A stretch of 64,000 nucleotides of DNA. Origin: Roseomonas sp. (GTDB lineage Bacteria > Pseudomonadota > Alphaproteobacteria > Acetobacterales > Acetobacteraceae). The position numbers and the translations under genes were made by a program. This document shows positions 24,872-26,611 of the stretch, in pieces. The stretch lies in the NCBI GenBank assembly GCA_020249265.1, contig JADCGA010000019.1, forward strand, positions 156,081-220,080, in the 5' to 3' direction. The notes under the pieces were generated by a model. It was not told the origin of the DNA. It saw nothing but the letters and a program-made list of their open reading frames with translations, and did no database searches. Position 1 is the stretch's first letter. Each line of letters starts with the position of its first letter.

Positions 24872-25087
24872 GCAATTTTGCCCGTTAAGGGCATGAATAT
24901 CTGACCGGAGCGGTCATGAATTCCGCCCGCATTACCTGCTTGGCGGGTGACCTGAGACGTTTTTTGTGTTAAGAATATATTTCGTTATCTCGGCGTCTGG
25001 TCTGACCCAGGTGTCTGCCGAGGATGATGGTCTGCATTCTCAACCGGATCGCGCTGATCCGGATTCTGCGTTGGGAGTCCCGTTTTC

Positions 25088-26611
25088 ATGACACGCAAGC
25101 CTGTGTCCAAGATTTCTGCTAAAGGCGGCGCCAAGCCGGCCCGGCCCGCGGCGAAGAAGCCCGCCAGCAAGGCGAAATCGGCCGCAAAGCCGGCTGCGAA
25201 GAAATCCTCCGCCAAGGCAAAGGCGACCACGAAGCCCAACAAGAAGGCGGCGCCGAAACCTGTGAAGAAGCCAGTGACCAAAGCGGCGGCAAAGCCTGCG
25301 CCGAAGCCAAGCGCGAAGCCGGCAAGCAAGCCCGCGGCGAAAGCTGTCGCACCTGGCAAAGCCAAGCCTGCCGCCAAAGCCGCGCCCAAATCCGCCCCCA
25401 AAGCAGCAGCCAAACCTGCCGCCAAGCCGGCGGCAAAGGCCGCGCCCAAACCCGCCGCCAAACCAGCAGCGAAGCCCGCTGCCCCCGCCGTGCAGAAGGC
25501 AGTCAGCGCCAAGCCTGCTGTGCCCGCCAAGGTCGAAAAGCCCGCCGCGAAGCCCGTGGCGCCAGTGACCGAGACAGCCGCTAAGCCGCCCGTACCGCCA
25601 AAGCCCGCGAAGCCTGCTGCCTCGGCGGCTGAAGCGCCTGCTCAGGCCGTCGCGCCGGCAGCCGAACCCGCCAAGCCTGCACCCAAGCCCAAGGCAAAGG
25701 CCGCACCCGCAGCCAAGGCAGAACCATCAGCACCACAGGTTAAAGCAAAAGCAGAAACTGTGCCTGCCAAGACTGGCCTTCAGGAAGCGCCGAGCCCTGC
25801 ACCTGCGGCACCGGAAGCCCCAAGCCGGCCCGCGCTTGTGCAAGCGCCTGCCATTGCCATGGTGACCCTGCCTGCCCCGGCGCCAGCGCCACGCCCGGCG
25901 CCGCCGCCCAGTATTTCGCCGCTTTCTCCGCCACCGCCCACCATGCGCCCGAATGTCCAGATGGGAATGCGCCCGCCTGGCGGAGGCCCGCCTCGTCCTG
26001 GAATGCCAATGTCATCTTCTTCGCCCAAACCGCCCCCTGCCCCGAAACAGGAATTCAAGACGGGCGATTACGTCGTCTATCCGACGCATGGTGTGGGCAC
26101 AGTGCAGGGCATCCGCACGGTTGAGGCCGCCGGCTATTCCTTGCAGGTCATTGAAGTGACCTTTGAAGAAAACCGCATGAAGTTGAGCGTGCCGGTGAAC
26201 AAGGCCTCATCTTCGGGCCTGCGCAAGCTCTGCACGACGGAAAGCTTCCAGCCGGCCATGGATACGCTGAAGGGCCGTGCCCGCATCAAGCGCACCATGT
26301 GGTCCCGCCGTGCGCAGGAATATGAGGCGAAGATCAATTCGGGCGATCCGGTGCAAATCGCGGAAGTGGTGCGCGACCTGTTCCGCAACGCGGGCCAGCC
26401 CGACCAATCCTTCAGCGAACGCCAGATCTATGAATTGGCGCTTGACCGCTTGGCCGCCGAAGCAGCGGCGATTGACCGCTGCGACAAGCCGACCGCGATT
26501 GAAAAGCTGATGGTGGTGTTGCGTTCCGGCGCTGCCGGGTCGCGCGAAGCTGCGCCAAAGGAAACCAGCGCGCCAGCCGCTGCCGCTGAGGCGCAATTGC
26601 CGCCGGAATAG
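25088..26611 (+). CDS. CarD-family transcriptional regulator with long N-terminal Lys/Ala/Pro-rich extension
   Basis: aa ~1-319 K/A/P-rich repeats (KPAAKAAPKSAPKAAAKPAAKPAAKAAPK); aa ~320 onward CarD/CdnL domain (FKTGDYVVYPTHGVGTVQGI...FEENRMKLSVPVNKA...RRAQEYEAKINSGD). Confidence 0.9.
   Translation: MTRKPVSKISAKGGAKPARPAAKKPASKAKSAAKPAAKKSSAKAKATTKPNKKAAPKPVKKPVTKAAAKPAPKPSAKPASKPAAKAVAPGKAKPAAKAAPKSAPKAAAKPAAKPAAKAAPKPAAKPAAKPAAPAVQKAVSAKPAVPAKVEKPAAKPVAPVTETAAKPPVPPKPAKPAASAAEAPAQAVAPAAEPAKPAPKPKAKAAPAAKAEPSAPQVKAKAETVPAKTGLQEAPSPAPAAPEAPSRPALVQAPAIAMVTLPAPAPAPRPAPPPSISPLSPPPPTMRPNVQMGMRPPGGGPPRPGMPMSSSSPKPPPAPKQEFKTGDYVVYPTHGVGTVQGIRTVEAAGYSLQVIEVTFEENRMKLSVPVNKASSSGLRKLCTTESFQPAMDTLKGRARIKRTMWSRRAQEYEAKINSGDPVQIAEVVRDLFRNAGQPDQSFSERQIYELALDRLAAEAAAIDRCDKPTAIEKLMVVLRSGAAGSREAAPKETSAPAAAAEAQLPPE

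What the first reader, a model, noticed from the sequence alone, without database searches (positions are those of the whole stretch)
25088..26611. CarD/CdnL domain fused to a ~319-residue histone-H1-like Lys/Ala/Pro N-terminal tail
The CarD RNAP-binding domain starts near residue 320. The preceding region is built from KPAAK/APKP-like repeats, resembling bacterial H1-like (HctB/AlgP-type) DNA-binding tails, then grades into a P/A-rich linker. Usual alphaproteobacterial CdnL proteins are short and lack this. Myxococcus CarD links a CarD domain to a C-terminal HMGA-like basic region, so this would be the mirror-image architecture. It may combine nucleoid binding with RNAP-promoter stabilisation.
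Basis: partly seen in the sequence, partly recalled or inferred. Interest (0 to 1): 0.74.

Follow-up and report, generated by a model that had tools for sequence, protein, structure and literature searches.

The report
RNA-polymerase helper with histone-H1-like tail
A bacterial protein that helps RNA polymerase open promoters carries a long, lysine-rich, histone-H1-like tail at its front end, and the same design recurs in about a quarter of the alphaproteobacteria sampled, which suggests that this helper often also holds DNA in a way the textbook version does not.

Summary
Window 25088-26611 is a 507-aa CdnL (RNAP-binding domain 323-381 and CarD_C 391-472, both far over Pfam cut-offs), the only one in this Acetobacteraceae genome, preceded by a ~320-aa Lys/Ala/Pro tail (net +52, 10 KPAA units against 1.1 in shuffles, Lys every fourth residue). 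The tail is real coding sequence. Its start is conserved in 15 near relatives, tail dN/dS is 0.24, lysines change least of all common residues, and net charge stays at +47 to +63 while length drifts.

Two corrections. The architecture is not peculiar to this locus: an H1-like N-tail occurs in most Roseomonas-type Acetobacteraceae and in 35 of 146 sampled genomes (27 of 101 families) elsewhere in the class, including low-GC genomes, with several gains or losses. The nearest precedent is the C-terminal H1-like tail of Anaeromyxobacter/Vulgatibacter CarD; human H1 tails can replace the HMGA tail of Myxococcus CarD.

Most likely mechanism: ordinary CdnL stabilisation of the open complex, plus a disordered polycationic arm that grips DNA non-specifically near the promoter. 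DNA binding is inferred, not tested. I found no description of N-tailed CdnLs in the papers held. New variant of a known kind.

The parts
25088..26611 (+). cdnL (carD-like) gene, 507 aa, single copy in the genome (the other RID hit is a 1158-aa frame, Mfd-sized)
25088..25567 (+). basic H1-like segment, residues 1-160, net +42, KPAA-type repeats with Lys every 4 residues; residues 1-65 nearly invariant in near relatives
25568..25867 (+). variable Ala/Pro-rich, weakly charged linker, residues 161-260
25868..26047 (+). conserved Pro/Met/Gly-rich juxta-domain linker, residues 261-320 (RPAPPPSISPLSPPPPTMRPNxQxGMRPPGGGPPRPGMPM); pN/pS 0.089, predicted disordered
26054..26230 (+). CarD_TRCF_RID domain (RNAP-beta binding), residues 323-381
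26258..26503 (+). CarD_C domain (open-complex/DNA wedge), residues 391-472, with the conserved Trp/Arg/Arg/Tyr patch
26537..26608 (+). clade-specific C-terminal extension, about residues 484-507, replacing the usual C-terminal AA/VA of alphaproteobacterial CdnL
   Evidence: degron background PMC5324124
25044..25062 (+). conserved 5'-leader hairpin CCGGATC-GCGCT-GATCCGG with covarying pairs
25073..25077 (+). Shine-Dalgarno-like GGGAG, 10 nt before the ATG, invariant in 14 near relatives

Best explanation
This is the organism's only CdnL: an RNAP-beta-binding factor that stabilises the open promoter complex, to whose N-terminus an intrinsically disordered, histone-H1-like polycationic arm has been added. 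[quoted passage not shown] The Lys-rich arm most likely grips the DNA backbone non-specifically, upstream of the promoter or on neighbouring DNA, through a flexible P/A linker. That would raise the local concentration and residence time of CdnL-RNAP on DNA and add affinity to the open complex. Shown here: the domain make-up, that the tail is coding sequence under purifying selection aimed at lysines, and its recurrence. Inferred: DNA binding, effect on open complexes, disorder in vivo.
For: Complete CdnL domains and a confident CarD fold, with PDB matches to Thermus, Mycobacterium and Myxococcus CarD/CdnL, including RNAP-bound ones. Residues needed in Caulobacter are kept (V39, P54, W90, R92, R93, Y127, R130 equivalents). 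Single copy and conserved fdxA-cdnL gene order in 60 of 67 loci with enough upstream DNA, so it is the true orthologue. Tail selection: dN/dS 0.24; Lys changes in 17-19% of comparisons against 45% Ala, 32% Pro, 52% Ser, 68% Thr; net charge +47 to +63. Recurrence in 27 of 101 other families. Known analogues: human H1 or its C-terminal region replaces the HMGA tail of Myxococcus CarD, where a basic, structurally disordered domain suffices (PMC8156234), and KPAA peptides of AlgP bind DNA (PMC9239181).
Against: No DNA-binding data. An N-terminal FLAG tag impaired Caulobacter CdnL function (PMC5324124), so an N-terminal arm is not obviously neutral for the RID. Related genomes have short or weakly charged tails (Belnapia, Pseudoroseomonas), so the tail is not essential to CdnL function. 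K/A/P tails also sit on urease gamma and RsfS in this genome, which do not act at promoters. The window clade carries R47S (Mtb numbering) on the RNAP-beta face, although the equivalent R52A was tolerated in Caulobacter.
Confidence: 0.55

Rival explanations
1. Nucleoid or polyanion tether: the arm mainly holds CdnL-RNAP to bulk nucleoid, RNA or polyphosphate (AlgP/PhaF-like, possibly condensate-forming) and does not act at individual promoters.
For: KPAA-type composition and net +52 closely match AlgP (net +55, 25 KPAA repeats, polyP-granule and DNA association; PMC9239181). Length drifts while charge is kept, as expected for a bulk electrostatic role.
Against: It is fused to a dedicated RNAP/promoter factor as the sole CdnL, and the conserved juxta-domain linker suggests a geometry that matters relative to RNAP. 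No direct data either way.
Confidence: 0.22
2. Generic low-complexity appendage: a K/A/P tail of a kind this lineage adds to many proteins, kept only by loose compositional constraint (solubility, turnover), with no specific DNA role.
For: The same genome has K/A/P tails on TopA, RsfS and urease gamma. Tail length varies from ~50 to ~390 aa among relatives.
Against: Lys is conserved far above other residues, the first 65 residues are nearly invariant, and net charge is stable. Tails recur on CdnL in low-GC genomes unlike this one (L203, L217, L225, L227, L229).
Confidence: 0.17
3. Internal initiation gives a short CdnL as the main or a second product; the Met-rich segment at residues 286-308 holds alternative starts.
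For: Several in-frame ATGs lie just before the domain (Met at 286, 292, 294, 306, 308), and the segment is conserved (pN/pS 0.089).
Against: pS in that segment (0.36) is no lower than in the core (0.32), so amino acids, not a ribosome site, are constrained. Met 292 is Leu in about half of near relatives. The upstream start and GGGAG are conserved.
Confidence: 0.05
4. The tail is a spurious in-frame extension in GC-rich DNA.
For: GC-rich genomes do give long open upstream frames (e.g. L194, L195, Arg-rich noise).
Against: dN/dS 0.24, conserved start, K-tail score 164.5 against a 99.9th percentile of 19 in control frames, and low-GC homologues with the same tail type.
Confidence: 0.01

Closest known systems
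CdnL / CarD_CdnL_TRCF family (Caulobacter CdnL, Mtb CarD, Thermus CarD, M. xanthus CdnL)
   Same: Both domains, fold, RNAP-beta and wedge residues, single-copy orthologue next to fdxA
   Different: Known members are described as 160-200-aa standalone proteins without a DNA-binding appendage (PMC4374960); here 320 extra N-terminal residues, plus a C-terminal extension replacing the AA/VA end
Anaeromyxobacter dehalogenans and Vulgatibacter incomptus CarD (CarD domain plus H1-like K/A/P C-tail)
   Same: RNAP-binding CarD domain joined to an H1-like disordered K/A/P tail without AT-hooks (PMC9304148)
   Different: There the tail is C-terminal, the protein is the myxobacterial CarD paralogue encoded with CarG, and CdnL exists separately (in M. 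xanthus; PMC4374960); here the tail is N-terminal on the only CdnL. I did not search the genome for CarG
M. xanthus CarD (HMGA-like C-tail)
   Same: Modular RNAP-binding plus disordered basic DNA-binding tail; an H1 tail can substitute (PMC8156234)
   Different: AT-hooks and an acidic segment there; no RGRP/GRP motif here; opposite end
AlgP / PhaF KPAA-repeat tails of Pseudomonas
   Same: KPAA repeats, closely spaced lysines, strong net charge, predicted disorder (PMC9239181)
   Different: C-terminal, on granule-associated or helical proteins, not on an RNAP factor

Membership tests
CdnL (standalone CarD-domain RNAP factor) | CarD_TRCF_RID followed by CarD_C | tested here: met
   both above gathering cut-offs; fold match
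CdnL (standalone CarD-domain RNAP factor) | Conserved RNAP-beta contact residues (Cc V39, R52, P54) | tested here: inconclusive
   V39 and P54 kept; R52 is Ser in the whole near clade. R52A did not reduce binding in Caulobacter (PMC5324124)
CdnL (standalone CarD-domain RNAP factor) | C-terminal-domain Trp/Arg patch for the open complex | tested here: met
   invariant W, RR, Y, R in alignment A1
CdnL (standalone CarD-domain RNAP factor) | 160-200 aa, no DNA-binding appendage | tested here: not met
   507 aa with a 320-aa tail. Size is descriptive; orthology is supported by synteny and single copy, so it is described as an extended CdnL orthologue, not as a typical CdnL
CdnL (standalone CarD-domain RNAP factor) | Binds RNAP-beta and stabilises open complexes | not testable with these tools
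   needs biochemistry
Myxobacterial CarD | C-terminal HMGA (AT-hook) or H1-like tail | tested here: not met
   tail is N-terminal, no RGRP/GRP
Myxobacterial CarD | CarG partner gene in the same operon | tested here: not met
   neighbours are fdxA upstream and an aldo/keto reductase on the opposite strand downstream; CarG elsewhere in the genome was not searched
H1-like KPAA tail (AlgP/PhaF type) | K/A/P-rich, KPAA repeats, strong net positive charge | tested here: met
H1-like KPAA tail (AlgP/PhaF type) | Intrinsic disorder | tested here: inconclusive
   no secondary structure and pLDDT about 40-57 in the tail, but that model used a single sequence and scored low even in the core. The juxta-domain linker is low-confidence in the aligned model
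H1-like KPAA tail (AlgP/PhaF type) | Binds DNA | not testable with these tools
   needs gel shift or ChIP

The most novel reading that the evidence does not exclude
Alphaproteobacteria have repeatedly turned their sole CdnL into a CarD-like, DNA-gripping factor by growing an H1-like N-terminal arm, so that RNAP in these lineages carries its own histone-tail-like DNA tether at initiation. This would be an unrecognised class of general transcription factors, topologically inverted relative to myxobacterial CarD.
Probability: 0.35. Interest if true: 0.75.

Novelty: new variant of a known kind. Interest (0 to 1): 0.55.

Why it matters
CdnL is described as a small standalone RNAP factor that does not itself carry a DNA-binding tail, with tailed CarD proteins found only in myxobacteria. 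If the N-tails bind DNA, that division breaks down for roughly a quarter of the alphaproteobacteria sampled. It would also provide repeated natural experiments on what a histone-H1-like tail does for RNA polymerase: tail-plus and tail-minus orthologues exist side by side in one family.

Tried and rejected
Spurious-frame and internal-start readings: rejected by dN/dS, start conservation and unconstrained synonymous sites. AT-hook/HMGA reading: no GRP motif. Compensating change in the RNAP beta1 lobe for the clade's R47S: none seen where the stretch was readable; it reads [21 protein letters not shown] in near relatives as in outgroups. Rfam match in the 5' leader: none. A first ferredoxin pattern was too strict and found nothing; corrected. 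The single-sequence model of the full protein was poor throughout and is used only as weak evidence. Garcia-Heras 2009 itself is not held; its results are taken from PMC9304148 and PMC8156234. Literature searches for N-tailed CdnL found none, but only open-licence papers are covered.

Full report
WHAT IS THERE. The ORF at 25088-26611 (+) encodes 507 aa. Pfam gives CarD_TRCF_RID at residues 323-381 and CarD_C at 391-472, both far over cut-off; phmmer finds M. xanthus CdnL, Mtb CarD and Thermus CarD in the PDB. It is the only CdnL in the genome; the second RID hit lies in a 1158-aa frame, the size of Mfd. Upstream lies fdxA and a Suv3-type helicase; downstream, on the other strand, an aldo/keto reductase. 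Near relatives identify the host as Acetobacteraceae of the Roseomonas type.

THE TAIL. Residues 1-319 carry net +52 in a gradient: +13, +12, +10, +7 per 40 residues, then about +1 to +3, with +5 in the last block. KPAA occurs 10 times (shuffle mean 1.1, maximum 6 of 2000), and Lys recurs every four residues (autocorrelation 0.50, 0.39, 0.31 at lags 4, 8, 12). Codons for Lys, Ala and Pro are mixed, so this is not a fresh DNA repeat. There is no GRP or RGRP AT-hook.

IS IT TRANSLATED AND SELECTED? In 15 near relatives (core 94-100% identical) the start MTRKPVSK is in all rows, and GGGAG before the ATG is invariant in the 14 aligned. Pooled dN/dS is 0.24 in the tail and 0.029 in the core. The last 60 linker residues have pN/pS 0.089 with ordinary synonymous change (pS 0.36, core 0.32), so the amino acids are constrained. 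Lys is the most conserved common tail residue: it differs in 17-19% of comparisons, against Ala 45%, Pro 32%, Ser 52%, Thr 68%, Val 67%, although Lys codons have more nonsynonymous sites than Ala or Pro codons. Net charge stays at +47 to +63 while length runs from 295 to 343. Pairs are not independent and low-complexity stretches may be misaligned, which would inflate dN, so 0.24 is more likely too high than too low.

HOW WIDE IS IT? Among named Acetobacteraceae loci (Neoroseomonas, Siccirubricoccus, Roseicella, Caldovatus, Falsiroseomonas and others) tails of 150-390 aa are the rule, while Belnapia and Pseudoroseomonas have short or weakly charged ones; other, more distant members of the family (core 41-48% identical, L191-L201) have mostly compact proteins. 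Across the class I fetched CdnL loci for nearly all genomes of an even sample. A start-independent score for Lys-rich segments has a 99.9th percentile of 19 in control frames of the same DNA (one outlier at 82.5); the threshold was 30. Outside this family 35 of 146 genomes, in 27 of 101 families, pass, including low-GC genomes where GC-rich noise cannot explain it (L203, L217, L225, L227, L229). Most others begin only a few residues before the domain, often with MAKKK-like starts. On a tree of 215 cores the label needs 39 changes by parsimony, and well-supported branches alone force at least 6: the tail was gained and/or lost repeatedly. The genomes in that sample are unnamed, so the other families cannot be named here.

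THE FOLDED PART. AlphaFold2 on a 58-sequence alignment gives a confident CarD core (block means mostly 85-94) and a low-confidence linker. Best PDB matches are Thermus CarD, RNAP-bound Mtb CarD and M. xanthus CdnL. Residues needed in Caulobacter are kept, with one exception: the whole near clade carries Ser where nearly all others have Arg or Lys at Mtb R47 / Caulobacter R52, together with V36E and T45K. R52A was tolerated in Caulobacter (PMC5324124), and the RpoB beta1 stretch is unchanged where readable, so the RNAP contact is probably modified, not lost.

MECHANISM. Best supported: a normal CdnL that stabilises open complexes, with an added disordered polycationic arm acting as a non-specific DNA grip. 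Shown: domains, coding status, selection on Lys, recurrence, gene order. Inferred: DNA binding and its effect. The strongest outside support is that human H1, or its C-terminal region, can replace the HMGA tail of M. xanthus CarD (PMC8156234), that A. dehalogenans and V. incomptus CarD naturally carry an H1-like K/A/P C-tail (PMC9304148), and that KPAA peptides of AlgP bind DNA (PMC9239181). Rivals are a bulk nucleoid or polyP tether and a generic appendage. The latter gains weight because K/A/P tails also sit on DNA topoisomerase I, RsfS and urease gamma in this genome.

NOVELTY. What seems undescribed, in the papers I could search, is that many alphaproteobacterial CdnLs carry it at the N-terminus. 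The Caulobacter study reports alphaproteobacterial CdnL as highly conserved and found that an N-terminal tag impaired function (PMC5324124), which makes long natural N-tails more surprising. New variant of a known kind, interest 0.55.

Noticed in passing
window 25044-25062 (leader about 25030-25087): Conserved 5'-leader hairpin CCGGATC-GCGCT-GATCCGG before the cdnL start, with AT/GC/GT and TA/TG/CG covariation in 14 near relatives; no Rfam match. Possible autoregulatory leader.
   Followed up: partly
window residues at 26153-26188 (V36E, T45K, R47S in Mtb numbering): The near clade uniformly carries three unusual residues on the RNAP-beta face of the RID, including Ser at the otherwise Arg/Lys R47 position, with no matching change in the readable RpoB beta1 stretches.
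   Followed up: partly
window 26537-26608: The usual C-terminal AA/VA of alphaproteobacterial CdnL, linked to proteolysis in Caulobacter, is replaced by an 18-26-aa extension; turnover may differ.
   Followed up: no
L243:1440-1877 (-), same genome: Urease gamma subunit with a ~45-aa Lys/Ala/Pro C-terminal tail, odd for a metabolic enzyme.
   Followed up: partly
L314:1270-1935 (+) and L312:1462-2982 (-), same genome: RsfS with a ~100-aa K/A/P N-terminal tail, and DNA topoisomerase I with a K/A/P C-terminal tail: H1-like tails are a genome-wide theme here.
   Followed up: partly
L202, and second matches in G018, G064, G069, G095, G099 and G145: Some Acetobacteraceae have a second CarD_C match; the one read in full (L202) has no tail, which would suit within-genome comparison.
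   Followed up: no
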